Assembly: GCA_024331125.1 (NCBI GenBank)
Contig: JANDJI010000001.1
Coordinates: 714,001 to 778,000 of the forward strand
Source: Nitrospira sp.
GTDB taxonomy: Bacteria > Nitrospirota > Nitrospiria > Nitrospirales > Nitrospiraceae
Length of the DNA stretch: 64,000 nucleotides
Direction: 5' to 3'
Positions within the stretch are counted from its first letter, which is position 1. Every line of letters starts with the position of its first letter. The notes beneath the pieces are model-generated. The model saw nothing but the letters and a program-made list of their open reading frames with translations, was not told the origin of the DNA and made no database searches. This document shows positions 41,929-53,197 of this stretch, one piece after another. A program made the position numbers and the translations under genes.

Positions 41929-43653
41929 TTATCCCTGCGCCTCAATGGCTTGCAGCACCGATTTCAGAATCGGAGAGGCGTCAGGCTCCAGGAACAACGA
42001 CGAGAACAGCCGGCGAACCGTTTCCCGATGAGAACTATGGTCCGCGTGAAAATGTTCGGCGCCACGTTTCGGATCATCCGCGTCGTATCCCATTCGAATC
42101 GCACATCGTTCCAACGCCTCGTCGTCCTCCGGAAGGGTGTGCGTCTGCAAATCATCGACCATCTGAAGCTTGTGCTCGACGTCCCGAAGGAACACATACG
42201 CGGCAACCAATTCATTCCGCTGCCGTTTTGAAATCAACCGGTAGTGCGCACACCGGTCCAACGAGCGAAGCGTGTTCCGATCCAACAGGCCGGGGAGCCG
42301 CCTACCGGCAATGGCCTGGATCGTCTGCACTAAAAACTCGATCTCGCGGATGCCGCCGATGCCGAGCTTCACGTTCCGCCGCTCATGGCCTCGATCGGCA
42401 ATCTTGGCGTCGATCATCTCCTTGACGCTCCGCACGTCTCGCACGATGGCTCGCGCACGGTCGGCATCCGATTTCTCCCTTGGCCCGCCGACGATGAACG
42501 GCTTGACCATTTTAAGAAACGCCTGCCCTACCTCCAACGAGCCGGCGACCGGCCAGGCCTTGAGCAGCGCCAGCCGCTCCCACACCGCGCCGCGGTTTCG
42601 ATAGTACGCGGCATAGTCGTCAAGCGACCGGGCCAACTGCCCGACCGCCCCCTCCGCCCGCAATCGAAGATCCACGCGAAACACGGACCCCTCGTTCGTC
42701 TTTTCAGACAAGGCCCTCGTCAGCTCACGGGACAGTATTTCAAAGTATTCTTCATTGGAGATCCCGACGGCGCCGGGCGTATCCGATGTACGCCGAGGCA
42801 TCCGCGTCTCTCCCTTGCGCGACGCGTAGACATAGATCAAATCGACGTCGGAACTGTAGTTGAGCTCGTGGCCGCCGAGCTTGCCCATTCCGATCACGGT
42901 GAATCCCGTCTCCACCCACCGCCCGTGCCGATTTTTGTGCATCGGCACGCCGTACTGCCGACGCAAATCGGCGTCGACGATCTGGTAGGCCGCATGGATC
43001 AACGCGCCAGCCAAATCGGAGAGCGCGGCGGTCGTTTCCTGGACATCAGCAAGACGAAGCAGATCGCGCACGCCGATCCGCAACAGTTCCCGGCGCCGGT
43101 GGCGGCGCAACACGTCCAGCTTGAGCTCGGTGACCGTCAATCGCGCCAACTGTTCATGAAGCGACCGTTCCGTTTCAGCCCGGCTGACCGGCTTTGACAA
43201 GACCTCTTGTTCGCCCAACCAATAGACCAACATGGGGTCGCGAAGGATCGTAAACGCGAGCGCATCGCTGTTGCCGAAGATCGCGCAGAGCAGATCGAGC
43301 ATGCGCGGGGCCCCGGCCAGATACTCCAGCAAGGCGCCCCGCGTCAGGCCACTCAACAGACGTTCCCAGTGATTCAGCGCCTGATCCGGATCCGCCGTTC
43401 TGGAGATGGATGCCAAGAGCCTCGGCAAGATATCGGCCAATTGACGTCGATGGTGCGGCTCTCCGGCCATCGATTGCAGGTTACAATCGGCCCGCGCAAC
43501 GTCGCGAAGGCGGTATGCGGAAAGAATCGCCCGCGTCCGATCGAGGTTTCGATCCGAAGCCAGCAGGAGCGGCCTGGGGTCCGGCTTGTCGGGTTGAAGA
43601 GGGGCCGGCTCATTCAACAAGCGAATGGACGACGGTCTGGAGCGACGAATCAT
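41929..43653 (-). CDS. glnE: GlnE-like adenylyltransferase, single-nucleotidyltransferase form
   Basis: The 574-residue protein is about 60% the length of E. coli GlnE (946), which carries two nucleotidyltransferase domains. It matches the first (adenylyl-removing) half best: GMGKLGGHELNYSSDVDLIY with the catalytic Asp-x-Asp pair, FRVDLRLRAEGAVGQLARS, LGIGGIREIEFLVQTIQ, and FLRDVEHKLQMVDDLQTHTL. Such enzymes add or remove AMP on glutamine synthetase. I chose the ATG at MIRRSRPSS; a TATAAT lies 9 bases upstream and no ribosome-binding site is present. The second GlnE-like gene starts 47 bases away on the other strand. The gene symbol reflects homology; the activity (removal, addition or both) is inferred. 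Confidence 0.87.
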   Translation of the reverse strand: MIRRSRPSSIRLLNEPAPLQPDKPDPRPLLLASDRNLDRTRAILSAYRLRDVARADCNLQSMAGEPHHRRQLADILPRLLASISRTADPDQALNHWERLLSGLTRGALLEYLAGAPRMLDLLCAIFGNSDALAFTILRDPMLVYWLGEQEVLSKPVSRAETERSLHEQLARLTVTELKLDVLRRHRRRELLRIGVRDLLRLADVQETTAALSDLAGALIHAAYQIVDADLRRQYGVPMHKNRHGRWVETGFTVIGMGKLGGHELNYSSDVDLIYVYASRKGETRMPRRTSDTPGAVGISNEEYFEILSRELTRALSEKTNEGSVFRVDLRLRAEGAVGQLARSLDDYAAYYRNRGAVWERLALLKAWPVAGSLEVGQAFLKMVKPFIVGGPREKSDADRARAIVRDVRSVKEMIDAKIADRGHERRNVKLGIGGIREIEFLVQTIQAIAGRRLPGLLDRNTLRSLDRCAHYRLISKRQRNELVAAYVFLRDVEHKLQMVDDLQTHTLPEDDEALERCAIRMGYDADDPKRGAEHFHADHSSHRETVRRLFSSLFLEPDASPILKSVLQAIEAQG

Positions 43654-43700
43654 GACGGGAGCATTATACTGTTCCGCGACATTTCGGTATACTGGCGACC
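43654..43700. promoter_or_regulatory. Interleaved divergent promoters of the two glnE-like genes
   Basis: This 47-base gap holds TATAAT on the minus strand (43663-43668, 9 bases before the left ATG) and TATACT on the plus strand (43688-43693, 7 bases before the right ATG). Each -10 lies where the other's -35 region would be. Neither promoter has a good -35 hexamer, and neither gene has a ribosome-binding site, suggesting leaderless transcripts and mutually exclusive polymerase binding. Confidence 0.55.
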
Positions 43701-45974
43701 ATGGTTTCTCTCCCCTTGGAACGCGAACGTCTGTCAAACGCGCTGCTTCCCCTCTGCCAAAACATTCCATCCGACGTCCTGCAAGATTTTCTGAGCCGCA
43801 TGGACCCCGACTATTTCCTTCGTTTCGATCCGCCCATGATCGCCCGTCACCTCGGCTTGATCGCTCGACTCGAGCCGGACCATCCGTGCGAAGTCGCGAT
43901 CACCGATCAGGGCGGAGAACGGCTCACCGTCACCATCGTCGCCTACGACTACTTCTCCGAGTTCGCCGTCATCTGCGGCTTGCTCGCGGCCTTCGGCCTG
44001 AACATCGAAGAGGGCCAAATCTACACGTTCTCGGAACCGGCGACTTCGACGCTCCCTCGAAGTCGCGTGAGCAAGGAATCACACAGTCGTCACAAAACCA
44101 GACCGGGCTTGACCAGAAAGAAGATCGTCGACGTCTTCCTCGTGCGGCCGGGGCCCGGCGTGTCGTTTGGACCGACCGAACGCCGTCGCTTCACCACTGA
44201 ACTCACCGACCTCTTGAAGCGTCTCGACACCGGACAATATGCCGAAGCCCGCCACGCCGTGAACCGCCGACTGATCGAGCAACTCGGCAAACGACGCGGC
44301 TCCTTCGGCGGCCTTCTCCACACCGTGCACATTACCTTCGACAACGGCCGCTCTCCCACCGATACGGTCATGGACATTCAGTCCGACGATACACCCGCGT
44401 TCTTGTACGCTTTCGCCAACGCCCTGGCCATGCGCAATATCTACGTCAGCAAGGCCCGGGTGGAGAGCACGGGATCGAAGATCCACGATCGATTTTTTGT
44501 CCGCAATCGGCACGGGCACAAGCTGCTGGATCACGCCGAGCAGGATCAGCTTCGCTTGACCGCCGTGTTGATCAAGCAGTTCACTCACGCCCTTACGTGG
44601 GCGCCCGATCCGGCCAAAGCGCTGGAATCGTTCGATCAGTTCCTCGACCTCATCGTGCAGGATCAAGGCAAGAGCGCGCGGAAAGCGCTGTCGTTCGTGA
44701 GTGACAAAAAAAGTCTTCCCGTCCTTGCGCGCCTGCTTGGGGCAAGCGATTTTCTCTGGGAGGATTTCCTCCGCCGGCAGTACGACAATCTGCTCCCGCT
44801 GTTACAAAACTACCGGGATGAGCCGCTCATCAAGCCGCCCACCCTGTTGCGCAAAGAACTGAACGCGGCCGTCAACAAAGCGAAGACCGACGAGGCCAAG
44901 AAGGAAGCCTTGAATCGATTCAAGGACCGCGAGCTGTTCCGGATCGACATGAAACACATTGTCGAGCCCTCGACCAGCCTCCCGGACTTTTCCTTGGCCA
45001 TCACCCACCTGGCCGAAGCGGTCGTCGATCGAGCCCTTGCCGATTGTCGTACCAAACTCGACCGGCTCCACGGCTCCCCCAAGCTTGCCGACAAGACATC
45101 CTGTCCCTTCGCCATTTTCGGGGCCGGCAAATTCGGCGGGCGGGAAATGGGATACGCCTCGGACATCGAGGTGCTTTTCGTGTACGGAGGACCCGGCCGC
45201 ACGAGCGGGAAACAATCCATCGACAACAGCGAGTACTTCGAACGGCTGGCGCAAGAGCTCCTGCAACGGATCGAGGCCAAACGGGAAGGCATCTTCCACC
45301 TGGACGTTCGCCTGCGGCCCCACGGAGACAAGGGTTCGCTGGCCAACGCCTTTGACGAAATCTGCTCCTATTACAGTCCAAGCGGCTTGGCCGCGCCGTT
45401 TGAGCGACAAGCCTTGATCAAACTCCGGTTCGTCTCCGGGGACGCGGGCCTTGGCAAGAAAGTCGAAGCCCACCGAGATCGCTACGTCTATAGCGGCGCT
45501 CCCTGGGACCTTGCCGCCGCGCTGGAGCTGCGTCGCCAACAGATCGCCCAACTCGTCAAACCGGGCCAGGTGAACCTCAAGCATAGCCACGGCGGGATCG
45601 TCACCATTGAGTACGCCGTTCAGTATTTGCAACTCATGCACGGGCACAAGGACCCGCGCCTGCGCACCCCCAACACCCTTCAAGCGCTGGCGGCGCTGAT
45701 CGACGGGGGCTTCATTTCATCCTCGACGGGAGAAGATCTGCGAAAGGCCTATCTGTTCATCCGTATGCTGATTGACGGGCTTCGCATGGTGCGAGGCAAC
45801 ACCAAGGACCTCGTGCTCCCGCCGCCTGATTCCGACGAATTCATCTTTCTCGCCCGCCGCGTCGGTTACATGACCGACGACTGGCAGGCCGGCGCCCGCC
45901 ATCTTCAGGCCGACATCGAGCAACACATGAGCCGGACGCGGGAGTTCTTCGAACGGATGTTTGGGAAACTGTGA
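43701..45974 (+). CDS. GlnE-like nucleotidyltransferase with N-terminal ACT-like region
   Basis: A 757-residue protein with a composite layout. Residues about 60-115 look like an ACT ligand-binding domain (RLTVTIVAYDYFSEFAVICG, LNIEEGQIYTF), as in the sensor end of GlnD; a second ACT-like stretch may lie at 205-275. Residues about 470-690 carry a GlnE-type nucleotidyltransferase (FAIFGAGKFGGREMGYASD, FHLDVRLRPHGDKGSLANA), followed by a helical C-terminal part. The catalytic pair reads Asp-x-Glu (SDIEVLFVY) instead of Asp-x-Asp, so activity needs testing. An ACT region on a GlnE enzyme suggests direct sensing of an amino acid such as glutamine; that is inference. TATACT lies 7 bases before the ATG. 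Confidence 0.83.
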   Translation: MVSLPLERERLSNALLPLCQNIPSDVLQDFLSRMDPDYFLRFDPPMIARHLGLIARLEPDHPCEVAITDQGGERLTVTIVAYDYFSEFAVICGLLAAFGLNIEEGQIYTFSEPATSTLPRSRVSKESHSRHKTRPGLTRKKIVDVFLVRPGPGVSFGPTERRRFTTELTDLLKRLDTGQYAEARHAVNRRLIEQLGKRRGSFGGLLHTVHITFDNGRSPTDTVMDIQSDDTPAFLYAFANALAMRNIYVSKARVESTGSKIHDRFFVRNRHGHKLLDHAEQDQLRLTAVLIKQFTHALTWAPDPAKALESFDQFLDLIVQDQGKSARKALSFVSDKKSLPVLARLLGASDFLWEDFLRRQYDNLLPLLQNYRDEPLIKPPTLLRKELNAAVNKAKTDEAKKEALNRFKDRELFRIDMKHIVEPSTSLPDFSLAITHLAEAVVDRALADCRTKLDRLHGSPKLADKTSCPFAIFGAGKFGGREMGYASDIEVLFVYGGPGRTSGKQSIDNSEYFERLAQELLQRIEAKREGIFHLDVRLRPHGDKGSLANAFDEICSYYSPSGLAAPFERQALIKLRFVSGDAGLGKKVEAHRDRYVYSGAPWDLAAALELRRQQIAQLVKPGQVNLKHSHGGIVTIEYAVQYLQLMHGHKDPRLRTPNTLQALAALIDGGFISSSTGEDLRKAYLFIRMLIDGLRMVRGNTKDLVLPPPDSDEFIFLARRVGYMTDDWQAGARHLQADIEQHMSRTREFFERMFGKL

Positions 45975-46118: not shown

Positions 46119-47027
46119 TTACTCTTCCAAGAAATAATCGCTGTCAATTTTCTTCGTTTCATAGGACATGACGGGCATGACGCCGACATTGTGATCAATC
46201 ATAAGCTGGGATAAGTGCTCACCATCGATGAGGACGATCTTTGAATTGATTTTGGCCACGTAGTCTTAGGCTTCCCGCGTGAAGCTGGACGTGGTGATGA
46301 AGATGCCTTTGTTTGTTCTGTGCCCCTGTAAAGCCCCGACGAACTTTTGGATCTCCGGACGGCCGATCGGATCTTTCCAGCGCTTCGCCCGAATATAAAT
46401 GACATCGAGGCCGAGACGATCTTCATTGATGATTCCGTCAATACCTTCATCGCCACTACGGCCGATGGCTTTTCCTGCTTCCTTGCGGGAACCGCCATAT
46501 CCCATTTTCACCAAGACATCGATGACCAACCGCTCAAAGAAAGCCGGCGAGCATTCCTTGACCGTGTTCAGCAACTCGGCCGCAAGGTCTTCGCGTAATT
46601 TTTGGTATGCACTTTCGAGGAGTTCCCCTGGTGTTTGCAGACTCCTATTTCCAGGCAACGGAATCTCTTCTTTGGACTCATGGCGCTTGGTACGGAAGTC
46701 GAGAAACTCCGGAAACTGCTCCAAGAACTTGACAGTGATTGCGGTCGGTCTTTGTGAAAGGATATCGCGCCCACGCTGCGTGATACGGAAAAACCCTCGA
46801 CGTGGAGCCTCAAGCAAGACCGCCTTCACCAGGTAGGTTCGCGCCCATGCGACGCGGTTCTCAAAGGTTGGTTGCTGCCCGCTCGGCAACAATTCCTTCT
46901 TCTCCTCCTCCGTAAGCCCGAACTCGGTCGACAATCTCTCGATTGCCTCCCGAAGGGAATGTTCTTTGTCATCGGCTGCGAACTGGAGCAGGGGAAGCAT
47001 GATGGATTGGTAATCCGGTATGGCCAT
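46119..47027 (-). pseudogene. mrr: Mrr-type restriction endonuclease interrupted by a stop codon
   Basis: Mrr cleaves methylated DNA (type IV restriction). The intact N-terminal DNA-binding part (MAIPDYQSIMLPLLQFA) and most of the nuclease domain (GDEGIDGIINEDRLGLDVIY, then IRAKRW) are encoded, ending FITTSSFTREA. A TAA stop then occurs at 46266-46268, but the same frame continues with DYVAKINSKIVLIDGE and LMIDHNVGVMPVMSYE to a second stop at 46119. The total matches a full-length Mrr of about 302 residues. One change from CAA to TAA explains the interruption. The catalytic motif also reads IRAK where QAK is usual. A 253-residue truncated product would lack the last strands. The region has a slightly lower GC content than its neighbours. 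Confidence 0.88.
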
Positions 47028-47268
47028 GGCATAGCTTCATCCTGAACGGCACAAGAGATGCCGGCCTGCGCGTTTTGGCGTCCCATGCAGGCGCGCGATT
47101 GTTGCGCAGGTTCCCCTCTTTGTCAACGTTACCTACCATGATGCCACCGAACAGGGTTAACGAAAGCTTTACAAAGCCGACATGGTCCCGCAATGCACGG
47201 CCGATACCATCGTCTCCAAATAAGAAGGACAAATTTCTTGACGAATACCTCACAAAGGGGGAATGTCG

Positions 47269-47652
47269 ATGGTCACAGTCGGACAACTCATGAATCACAA
47301 ACTGGTGACAGGATCTGGGACGATGACCGCCGTCGAAGCGGCCCGGTCCATGTCGGCCCACCGCGTCGGCAGCATTCTGGTGGAACACGATCGTCACATT
47401 GTCGGCATTGTGACGGAGTCGGACATCGTGAGGAAAGTGTTGGGGAACGGCCAAGAACCGTCCCTGTTTCCGATCGGCGTGATCATGAGCGCCCCGCTTA
47501 TCGGCATTGATGAACGACGTCCCATTACGGAAGCCGCCGACCTGATGTATCGATACGGTGTCCGGCATCTCGTGGTGCGCAAAGCCGACGCCGTCGTGGG
47601 GATCCTGTCGGTTCGGGATCTTCTCCGCCCGGTTTCAACCGATGACTTTTAG
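47269..47652 (+). CDS. CBS-domain pair protein
   Basis: A 127-residue protein formed by two CBS domains (about residues 5-60 and 70-125): VEAARSMSAHRVGSILVEHD and EAADLMYRYGVRHLVVRKAD, with VGIVTESDIVRKVL and VGILSVRDLLRPV. CBS pairs bind adenosyl ligands such as ATP, AMP or SAM and act as energy sensors. I chose the ATG at MVTVGQLMNHK, because AAAGGGGGA then has 6-base spacing; an ATG two codons earlier would be too close. It lies next to the mrr pseudogene and has no recognised partner. Confidence 0.87.
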   Translation: MVTVGQLMNHKLVTGSGTMTAVEAARSMSAHRVGSILVEHDRHIVGIVTESDIVRKVLGNGQEPSLFPIGVIMSAPLIGIDERRPITEAADLMYRYGVRHLVVRKADAVVGILSVRDLLRPVSTDDF

Positions 47653-49404: not shown

Positions 49405-50178
49405 TCAGGAGGACAGTCGATCCTCCAACGCTCGGAGGAGATCCGAGGCGGACAAGACCCCGATGATGGTCCCGTCGGCGGTGACGGGAATATGCCTGAT
49501 TACGTGTTTTTTCATGAGCGCGAGCGCATCGGCCAGGGGTTCGTCCTCTTCGATCGTCACGATGGATCGACTCATGCAGGAAGCCACCGTCGTGGTATTG
49601 GGATCAAGACCCTTGGCGATGACTTTTCGACTCAGATCGGAATCGGTAATGATCCCGATGTAGCGGGAGCCGTCATCCACGATCAGCGCGTCGATTCGAT
49701 ATTTTTGAAACGTCTTCCCCACCTCTTTGATTGTCGACGTTCGAGCGATGCTCCGCACATCATATGACGTGTAGTGCCGGACCAACGTTCGTTCTTCTCC
49801 TCCGCTCTTCTGGTTCACGGGTCTGCTCGCCAGGAGGCGGCTCCTCATCTCCAAGTCGGCCAGGCAGCTTTCCAAGACCTGTCGCCGCTGTTGAAGACTC
49901 TCACGCTCCATGTCATGGACGCCCGTTTCCTGCGCTTCCTCCGGCAGAAGCGCGGATTCTCCCGTTTTGGCGTACACGTACGCCTCGGCCTGATCGGAGG
50001 CGGCTCCGAAGACTTGTGCGATCAGTTCTTCGGCCTCTTCGTCGAAATCATCGATCGACACAGACGCCCGTTTGCGTGAGAGAAACGGCTGGAATCTATC
50101 AAGCTGTCGCTTGAACCGCTCAATGTATCGTTTCAAGATGTCGCTTCTCGTCAATCCCGTTCGAACGGGTTTCGGCAT
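49405..50178 (-). CDS. CBS-domain protein with long N-terminal coiled region
   Basis: A 257-residue protein. Residues about 1-130 are helical and charged (ILKRYIERFKRQLDRFQPFL, SLQQRRQVLESCLADLEM). Residues about 135-255 form a CBS pair (FQKYRIDALIVDDGSRYIG, IITDSDLSRKVI, LALMKKHVIRHIPV, IIGVLSASDLLRALED). A strong GAGGGGAGGAG precedes the ATG. The family is not otherwise recognised; sensing of adenine nucleotides is the general expectation. It is divergent from the adhesin-E-like gene. Confidence 0.85.
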   Translation of the reverse strand: MPKPVRTGLTRSDILKRYIERFKRQLDRFQPFLSRKRASVSIDDFDEEAEELIAQVFGAASDQAEAYVYAKTGESALLPEEAQETGVHDMERESLQQRRQVLESCLADLEMRSRLLASRPVNQKSGGEERTLVRHYTSYDVRSIARTSTIKEVGKTFQKYRIDALIVDDGSRYIGIITDSDLSRKVIAKGLDPNTTTVASCMSRSIVTIEEDEPLADALALMKKHVIRHIPVTADGTIIGVLSASDLLRALEDRLSS

Positions 50179-50874: not shown

Positions 50875-52284
50875 CTACACGTCGTAATACAGGAAAAACT
50901 CATAGGGATGCGGGCGTAACCTGACAGGATCAATTTCCTTATCCCGCTTGTACTTGATCCAGGCTTCGATCAGATCTTCGGTAAACACCTCGCCTTTCAG
51001 CAAAAACTGATGGTCCTTTTCCAGGCAAGCGATCGCTTCATCCAAGCTCCCCGGCATCGTAGGAATGCCTGCGGCTTCTTTCGGGTCGAGATCGTATAGG
51101 TCTTTTTCCGCCGGCTCGCCCGGGTTGATCTTGTTCTGGATTCCGTCCAACCCCGCCATCAACATCGCCGGAAACGCGAGATAGGGATTGCACGACGGGT
51201 CCGGAAACCGCACTTCGATCCGTTTGGCCTTTGGGCTGGGCGAATACATCGGAATGCGGATGCCGGCTGAGCGATTTCGGCTGGAATAGGCCAGCAGTAC
51301 GGGAGCTTCGAATCCCGGCGTGATCCGCTTGTAGGAATTCGTCGTCGGATTGGTAAACGCGGCCAAGGCCGGCGCGTGTTTGAGGATTCCCCCGATGTAA
51401 TAGAGACAGAGTTGCGAGATGCCCGCATATTCTTTTCCGGCAAACAACGGCTTGCCGTCTTTCCACAGGCTCTGATGGGTATGCATGCCGGACCCCGCGT
51501 CGCCGAAGAGAGGCTTGGGCATGAACGTGACCGTTTTCCCGTGCCGGCGCGCGACGTTTTTGACGATGTATTTGTACATCATCATGTTGTCGGCCGTTTT
51601 CACGAGCGTGTCGAATCGGATATCGATCTCGGCTTGGCCGGCCGTCGCCGTCTCGTGATGGTGTTTTTCCACGGCAATCCCTGCTTTTTCCATTTCGAGC
51701 ACCATCTCGCTTCGGATATCTTGCTGCGTATCAGCCGGCGCCACGGGGAAGTAGCCTTGCTTATGGCGGATCTTCCCGCCCAAATTGACCCCCTCCTGGC
51801 CCATGTTCCAAACGCCTTCCTCGGAGTCGAGATAGTAATAGCCGCTGTGGCTCGTTTGGTCATAGCGCGCATGGTCAAAAATAAAAAATTCCGCCTCGGG
51901 CCCCCAATAAGACGTATCAGCGATTTTCGTGCTTTGGAGATACTTCTCGGCCTTCAGAGCCACGTACCGTGGATCGCGGTCATAATTCTGCCGTGAAACC
52001 GGGTCCACCACATTGCCCGTCAAACTGAGCGTCGGCACCGCGGTGAAGGGATCAAGACAGGCCGTCGCCGGGTCGGGGATCAGCAACAAATCGCTGTTAT
52101 TGATGGCCTTCCAGCCGCGAATCGATGATCCATCGAGACCAGACCCGTCCTTGAACAACTGTTCCGTCAGCTCGCTCACGGGGACGCTCATGTGCTGCCA
52201 CACGCCGGGCAAATCGACGAATTTCAGATCGACGATTTGCACCCTGTGTTTCTTGGCGAACTCCAACACCTCGCGCACGTTCAT
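50875..52284 (-). CDS. glnA: Glutamine synthetase, type I
   Basis: The 469-residue GS makes glutamine from glutamate, ammonia and ATP. Family signatures include [29 protein letters not shown] with metal-binding residues, and [16 protein letters not shown]. The adenylylation site Tyr397 is present ([16 protein letters not shown]), so it can be regulated by AMP addition, matching the GlnE-like genes in this window. GGAGGGAAGG precedes the ATG. It lies downstream of glnB with a 248-base gap, in which no clear sigma-54 promoter was found. Confidence 0.98.
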
Positions 52285-52532
52285 CCTTCCCTCCTTTTAG
52301 AAGCCATCCACATAGTCCGCCCAAACGGCAGTCGTCCTCCTCCTCCTCGTCGATCAAGCATCCGTCAACTCAATCATGGCGGCCCGCCCAAGGCTGGCAG
52401 GGAATCGGTGCACCCCGCGTTTGACGACCGTTTTCGCGTCAAGCGGGGCTGCCGTGAGCGCGACGACGTGATTGCCTGGGATGACTCCGCCCGGTCTGAT
52501 GGCTGGAATAAAACCGAAAGGGCATCGCCTTG

Positions 52533-53197
<665 letters not shown>

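What the first reader, a model, noticed from the sequence alone, without database searches (positions are those of the whole stretch)
41929..45974. A divergent pair of GlnE-like enzymes, one with an ACT-like sensor region
Two separate proteins each carry one GlnE-type nucleotidyltransferase domain instead of one protein with two. The second has an N-terminal ACT-like region, the kind of amino-acid sensor found in GlnD, and an Asp-x-Glu catalytic pair. GlnA in this window keeps the Tyr397 target and PII keeps Tyr51, while no glnD is present here. The pair could let glutamine be read directly by a modifying enzyme. The domain calls are seen; the circuit is inferred.
Basis: partly seen in the sequence, partly recalled or inferred. 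Interest (0 to 1): 0.75.

Follow-up and report, generated by a model that had tools for sequence, protein, structure and literature searches.

The report
Split GlnE with GlnD-type sensor fusion
In nitrifying Nitrospira bacteria the enzyme that switches glutamine synthetase on and off is split into two proteins, one of which carries the amino-acid-sensing end of a different regulator (GlnD), and in this complete ammonia oxidiser and its close relatives GlnD itself has been deleted, so nitrogen control must run by a rewired circuit.

Summary
Confirmed and extended. ORF1 (41929-43770, -) is a stand-alone deadenylylase (AR) half of GlnE. ORF2 (43701-45974, +) is the adenylylase (AT) half fused behind a tandem ACT module homologous over 231 columns to the C-terminal third of GlnD. 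A tree of 80 domains puts ORF1 with canonical GlnE N-halves and ORF2 on the side of the C-halves (100/99). ORF2 occurs across class Nitrospiria (168 of 197 genomes); other classes of the phylum keep a two-domain GlnE without ACT. The two halves are nearly always kept or lost together. The window is a comammox Nitrospira (amoA and Rh50 in the genome). Its glnD is gone: glnB now abuts glnA where relatives have glnB-glnD-glnA. So the split pair predates the glnD loss and survives it under strong purifying selection. Most likely the ACT tandem gates adenylylation by an amino acid, probably glutamine, without PII-UMP. Not shown: ligand, activity. Cautions: the ACT ligand-loop glycines are Ser/Ala in ORF2, the catalytic DxD is DxE, and Tyr397/Tyr51 persist even where the partner enzyme is lost, so they prove nothing. 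No paper describing this was found.

The parts
41929..43770 (-). ORF1: stand-alone GlnE adenylyl-removing (AR) half, 613 aa as called, probably 574 aa from ATG at 43653
   Evidence: PF03710 + PF08335; groups with canonical GlnE N-halves, branch 100/99; AF2 pLDDT 85.7, first 53 residues of low confidence
42511..43290 (-). ORF1 PF03710 nucleotidyltransferase domain (aa 161-420)
42841..42849 (-). ORF1 catalytic D308-x-D310, both Asp in all 20 homologues
41992..42429 (-). ORF1 PF08335 helical domain (aa 448-593)
43654..43700 (.). 47-bp divergent intergenic stretch if ORF1 starts at 43653
   Evidence: relatives' ORF1 begins at the equivalent Met; inference
43701..45974 (+). ORF2: GlnD-type ACT-ACT tandem fused to GlnE adenylyltransferase (AT) half, 757 aa
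43887..44228 (+). ACT1 (aa 63-176) with a lineage-specific low-confidence insert around aa 111-140
   Evidence: homology to GlnD ACT1; strands and helices of the model
44328..44585 (+). ACT2 (aa 210-295)
   Evidence: PF24931 above cut-off, GlnD ACT2 homology
44724..45467 (+). ORF2 PF03710 nucleotidyltransferase domain (aa 342-589)
   Evidence: Foldseek to 3k7d (AT) and 1v4a (AR), E about 1e-17 to 1e-18
45162..45170 (+). ORF2 catalytic D488-I-E490 (canonical DxD changed to DxE)
   Evidence: invariant in 25 homologues
45303..45305 (+). third active-site Asp, D535 of D-x-R-x-R
   Evidence: invariant
45564..45962 (+). ORF2 PF08335 helical domain (aa 622-754)
50875..52284 (-). glnA, type I glutamine synthetase with Tyr397 (codon 51094-51096), presumed target
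   Evidence: TIGR00653, 672.6 bits
52285..52532 (.). glnB-glnA junction (248 bp) where relatives carry glnD
52533..52874 (-). glnB (PII), Tyr51 kept, T45M in the T-loop

Best explanation
glnE of Nitrospiria is split. ORF1 is the AR enzyme, which removes AMP from Tyr397 of glutamine synthetase. ORF2 is the AT enzyme, which adds AMP, and it has gained the tandem ACT sensor of GlnD at its N-terminus. The two work as one opposing pair. Binding of an amino acid (glutamine most likely) by the ACT tandem gates the AT domain, so adenylylation follows the glutamine pool without PII-UMP. In comammox clade A, including this genome, glnD was deleted from between glnB and glnA, leaving this pair (with unmodified PII at most) as the covalent control of glutamine synthetase. 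Shown: split, domain ancestry, GlnD-type sensor, class-wide conservation, near-perfect co-retention of the halves, purifying selection, glnD loss. Inferred: activities, ligand, direction of control.
For: Domain tree: {ORF1 + canonical N-halves} against {ORF2 + canonical C-halves}, branch 100/99, 20 sequences per group, E. coli GlnE included as reference of known function. ORF2 N-terminus aligns with GlnD pre-ACT, ACT1 and ACT2, E=1.9e-28; ACT-like elements in the AF2 model, pLDDT 83.8; Foldseek hits to both E. coli GlnE halves, and weaker ones to ACT proteins. Active-site residues kept: G476, K477, G479, D488, E490, D535, R537, R539. ORF2 found in 168 of 197 class genomes; of 20 class genomes called ORF2-negative, 18 also lack ORF1 and any other GlnE. 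dN/dS between glnD-less genomes about 0.04-0.06 for ORF2 and 0.08-0.11 for ORF1. glnD missing genome-wide, with glnB directly next to glnA where relatives have glnB-glnD-glnA.
Against: No ligand or activity data. The Gly of the ACT ligand loop is kept in GlnD (18/21 in ACT1, 21/21 in ACT2) but is Ser/Ala in ACT1 and Ala in ACT2 of ORF2 (25/25 each), so glutamine binding may be altered or lost. The active-site DxD is DxE in every ORF2, and a conserved Arg is Asn. ORF2 sits on a long branch (1.35), which weakens its exact placement. Most class members have GlnD as well, so PII-UMP may still dominate there.
Confidence: 0.6

Rival explanations
1. The pair is a split GlnE acting on glutamine synthetase, but the ACT tandem does not sense glutamine: it binds another amino acid, or serves only as a dimerisation or docking module (for PII or for ORF1).
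For: Ligand-loop glycines replaced in both ACTs, with strongly conserved new residues D-Y-F-S/A and D-T/S-P-A-F-L.
Against: The rest of the GlnD ACT signature is kept and the protein is strongly conserved; ACT domains in this pathway are glutamine sensors (own knowledge of GlnD).
Confidence: 0.22
2. ORF2 is not a GS adenylylase but a PII-modifying enzyme: a GlnD-like sensor on a nucleotidyltransferase that uridylylates or adenylylates PII Tyr51.
For: Chimera of GlnD sensor and nucleotidyltransferase; diverged active site (DxE); PII Tyr51 kept in glnD-less genomes.
Against: The catalytic part is GlnE AT-lineage with GlnE-type PF03710 and PF08335; it coexists with full GlnD in most of the class; it is nearly always present or absent together with the AR half; PII Tyr51 can be conserved without uridylylation, as in cyanobacteria (own knowledge).
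Confidence: 0.1
3. ORF2 is catalytically dead and acts as a regulatory subunit of ORF1 or GS.
For: Asp to Glu at a metal-binding position in all homologues; long branch.
Against: All three carboxylates and the glycine and arginine motifs are invariant. Dh[DE]h is an accepted nucleotidyltransferase motif, e.g. kanamycin nucleotidyltransferase (own knowledge). Without an adenylylase ORF1 would have no substrate, yet it is conserved.
Confidence: 0.08

Closest known systems
Bifunctional GlnE / ATase (E. coli glnE; PF03710 twice; PDB 1v4a AR, 3k7d AT)
   Same: Each ORF carries one of its two nucleotidyltransferase + helical halves; ORF1 AR-type, ORF2 AT-type; target GS with Tyr397 is present.
   Different: Two divergently transcribed proteins instead of one; AT half fused to ACT-ACT; DxE in the AT active site; below the NCBIfam equivalog cut-offs.
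GlnD PII uridylyltransferase/uridylyl-removing enzyme (TIGR01693)
   Same: ORF2 aa about 15-286 is homologous to its C-terminal pre-ACT + ACT1 + ACT2 segment.
   Different: Lacks the GlnD nucleotidyltransferase and HD domains; the sensor is N-terminal here; ACT ligand-loop glycines replaced.
Actinobacterial GlnE and GlnD systems (Corynebacterium, Mycobacterium)
   Same: A GS adenylylation enzyme that does not depend on classical PII-UMP (own knowledge).
   Different: Those GlnE proteins are full-length and, to my knowledge, have no ACT domain.

Membership tests
GlnE (GS adenylyltransferase/adenylyl-removing enzyme) | PF03710 nucleotidyltransferase + PF08335 helical domain homology | tested here: met
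   Both ORFs above cut-offs
GlnE (GS adenylyltransferase/adenylyl-removing enzyme) | AR and AT halves both present, identifiable by phylogeny | tested here: met
   ORF1 on the AR side, ORF2 on the AT side, branch 100/99
GlnE (GS adenylyltransferase/adenylyl-removing enzyme) | Both halves in one bifunctional polypeptide above the equivalog cut-off | tested here: not met
   Split into two genes; best 340 and 206 bits against cut-offs 487-724. Filed as a split variant, not as canonical GlnE
GlnE (GS adenylyltransferase/adenylyl-removing enzyme) | Catalytic DxD ... D carboxylates | tested here: inconclusive
   ORF1 DxD met; ORF2 DxE, third Asp met
GlnE (GS adenylyltransferase/adenylyl-removing enzyme) | AMP transfer to, and phosphorolysis from, GS Tyr397 | not testable with these tools
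   Biochemistry needed; Tyr397 is present but also in pair-less genomes
GlnD (PII uridylyltransferase) | Tandem ACT sensor module | tested here: met
   ORF2, E=1.9e-28 over 231 columns
GlnD (PII uridylyltransferase) | GlnD nucleotidyltransferase + HD domains, full-length model above cut-off | tested here: not met
   73 bits against cut-off 519; match confined to positions 612-842
ACT domain | ACT-type alpha/beta fold | tested here: met
   ACT-like strand/helix order in the AF2 model; weak Foldseek hits to L-GDH180, threonine dehydratase regulatory domain, maize R ACT; PF24931 in 22 of 25
ACT domain | Ligand-loop Gly of amino-acid-binding ACTs | tested here: not met
   Ser/Ala in ACT1, Ala in ACT2, 25/25 each

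The most novel reading that the evidence does not exclude
A second architecture for covalent glutamine-synthetase control: a glutamine-gated adenylylase (GlnD sensor on the GlnE AT half) opposed by a separate deadenylylase. It makes the PII-uridylylation layer dispensable, and comammox clade A then deleted GlnD, giving a PII-UMP-free GS adenylylation cycle in complete ammonia oxidisers.
Probability: 0.45. Interest if true: 0.78.

Novelty: new variant of a known kind. Interest (0 to 1): 0.64.

Why it matters
The GlnD-PII-GlnE cascade is a textbook regulatory circuit. Here is a whole bacterial class in which its parts are recombined (GlnD sensor on GlnE AT, AR freed). Nature has also run two reciprocal deletions: comammox clade A lost glnD but kept the pair, while small-genome Nitrospiria kept glnD and lost the pair. 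That makes it directly testable whether sensing by ACT domains can drive GS adenylylation without PII-UMP. It also bears on how comammox Nitrospira balances ammonia as fuel against ammonia as nitrogen source.

Tried and rejected
1) 'glnD only missing because the MAG is 89% complete': rejected. 45 of 58 sampled genomes of the genus lack a glnD match, including near-complete single-contig ones (G147, G201), and the glnB-glnA junction is closed. 2) 'The pair replaced GlnD': rejected as origin, since most of the class has both. 3) 'Both ORFs are AR-like', suggested by family-model hits to the N-half: rejected for ORF2 by the 80-domain tree; a smaller tree left ORF2 unresolved. 4) Tyr397 and Tyr51 as evidence for the circuit: rejected by the control genomes. 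5) amoA-negative, glnD-less genomes as nitrite oxidisers: in the trees they nest among amoA-positive ones, so probably missing amo contigs. 6) G070 as amoA+ with glnD: its glnB sits next to glnA, and the glnD fragment is on another contig, so probably a binning artefact. 8) Literature: no paper with GlnE + ACT domain or with GlnE, GlnD, ACT domain and glutamine synthetase together; a comammox review names GlnD only in a synteny figure legend and does not discuss its loss in the text (PMC6311188). The library holds open-licence papers only, so absence there is not proof.
Full report
WHAT IS THERE. Two divergent genes sit downstream of groES-groEL. ORF1 (41929-43770, -) has one PF03710 and one PF08335 domain; so does ORF2 (43701-45974, +), behind about 290 residues that match the C-terminal ACT region of GlnD. 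The genome has only these two PF03710 domains and no glnD. Relatives' ORF1 begins at the Met equivalent to residue 40, so the real start is probably 43653 and the genes are 47 bp apart.

WHICH HALF IS WHICH. I extracted the nucleotidyltransferase + helical unit from both ORFs of 20 Nitrospiria and from both halves of 20 canonical GlnEs (19 from other classes of the phylum, plus E. coli, whose N-half is the deadenylylase and C-half the adenylylase). In the tree {ORF1 + N-halves} and {ORF2 + C-halves} are separated by a branch with support 100/99; ORF1 and ORF2 each form one clade. So ORF1 is AR-type and ORF2 is AT-type, the latter on a long branch. ORF1 keeps DxD...DxRxR. ORF2 keeps D488, D535, R537 and R539, but has E490 for the second Asp in every homologue, and Asn405 for a conserved Arg.

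THE SENSOR. A profile of 25 ORF2 N-termini aligns with a profile of 21 GlnD C-termini over 231 columns, E=1.9e-28, covering the pre-ACT segment and both ACT domains, including the D-N-x-x-S-x-x-T stretch just before ACT2. AF2 gives ACT-like strand/helix order twice (pLDDT 83.8). Foldseek finds E. coli AR and AT at E about 1e-17 to 1e-18 and, weakly, ACT proteins such as the 180-kDa glutamate dehydrogenase and the threonine dehydratase regulatory domain. ACT1 carries a low-confidence insert. The ligand-loop Gly of GlnD (18/21 in ACT1, 21/21 in ACT2) is Ser/Ala in ACT1 and Ala in ACT2 of ORF2, 25/25 each. The module is therefore kept, but the identity of its ligand is open.

DISTRIBUTION. In a sample of 148 phylum genomes all 40 of the class have ORF2, with a second, ORF1-type match in nearly all (G131 is cut by a contig end). 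The other classes have canonical GlnE, and the matches listed there begin at query residue 270 or later, i.e. without ACT. In 197 class genomes 168 have ORF2 at E<=1e-70. Of 20 class genomes called ORF2-negative, 18 have no ORF1 either and no GlnE domain except weak hits, most of them lying in glnD itself. The halves are thus gained and lost as a unit, although they are separate, divergent genes. Named carriers include Nitrospira defluvii and N. moscoviensis.

GLND LOSS AND COMAMMOX. glnD is present nearly throughout the class but absent in 45 of 58 sampled genomes of the window's genus. 35 of those 45 carry amoA, and the ten without amoA nest among amoA-positive ones in both gene trees. Parsimony on the ORF1 and ORF2 trees needs three changes in glnD state; starred branches force only one (ORF1 tree) or two (ORF2 tree). 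The window genome itself has amoA and a single Amt/Rh transporter of Rh50 type, 615 bits to the bacterial Rh50 structures 3b9w/3bhs, the transporter type reported for comammox clade A (PMC6311188). The amoA-carrying genomes of the second genus (g4, which I take to be clade B) and the nitrite oxidisers keep glnD. G185, with amoA and glnD, may be an early-branching exception. In relatives with glnD the order is glnB-glnD-glnA; in glnD-less genomes glnB abuts glnA with 53-78 bp (190 in G285; 242-248 in the window's subclade). glnD was removed from a defined place, not lost through poor assembly.

SELECTION AND CONTROLS. dN/dS between glnD-less genomes is about 0.04-0.06 for ORF2 and 0.08-0.11 for ORF1, no higher than among glnD-carrying genomes (synonymous sites are near saturation in most pairs, so the ratios are rough). 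GlnA Tyr397 is kept in genomes without the pair, and PII Tyr51 in genomes without GlnD; neither residue is evidence for the modification here.

MECHANISM. Best reading: an opposing enzyme pair on glutamine synthetase in which the ACT tandem gates the adenylylase by an amino acid, most likely glutamine, so that the PII-UMP layer became dispensable and was deleted in comammox clade A. Homology, split, fusion, co-retention, selection and glnD loss are shown. Catalysis, ligand and direction are inferred. From memory, E. coli AR and AT fragments are separately active and E. coli ATase responds directly to glutamine; both make a split, self-sensing pair plausible.

NOVELTY. No paper in the held library joins GlnE with an ACT domain. 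I class it as a new variant of the GlnE/GlnD system. Occurrence outside Nitrospirota could not be tested properly.

Noticed in passing
window 52285-52532 and loci L208-L216: glnD has been deleted from the glnB-glnD-glnA operon in comammox clade A Nitrospira, while the presumed clade B and nitrite oxidisers keep it.
   Followed up: yes
G183, G249, G219, G260, G157 and others: Several small-genome Nitrospiria keep glnD but lack both GlnE halves, the reciprocal of comammox clade A.
   Followed up: partly
window 52719-52740 (PII T-loop): PII of the window's subclade (G000, G262, G208, G227), and of G252 and G232, has Met instead of Thr at position 45, in the T-loop near Tyr51.
   Followed up: no
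window 46266-47027 (-): Mrr-type restriction endonuclease (Mrr_N + Mrr_cat) next to the pair, present in the near relative L133 but not detected at this site in N. defluvii or N. moscoviensis.
   Followed up: no
ORF2 versus ORF1 trees: The window subclade's ORF2 groups with nitrite-oxidiser and g4 sequences, whereas its ORF1 falls in an unresolved group with the other glnD-less genomes; possible gene exchange of ORF2 alone.
   Followed up: no
window 47263-47652 and 49405-50178: Two CBS-pair proteins between the GlnE pair and glnA; the second is syntenic in many Nitrospira.
   Followed up: no
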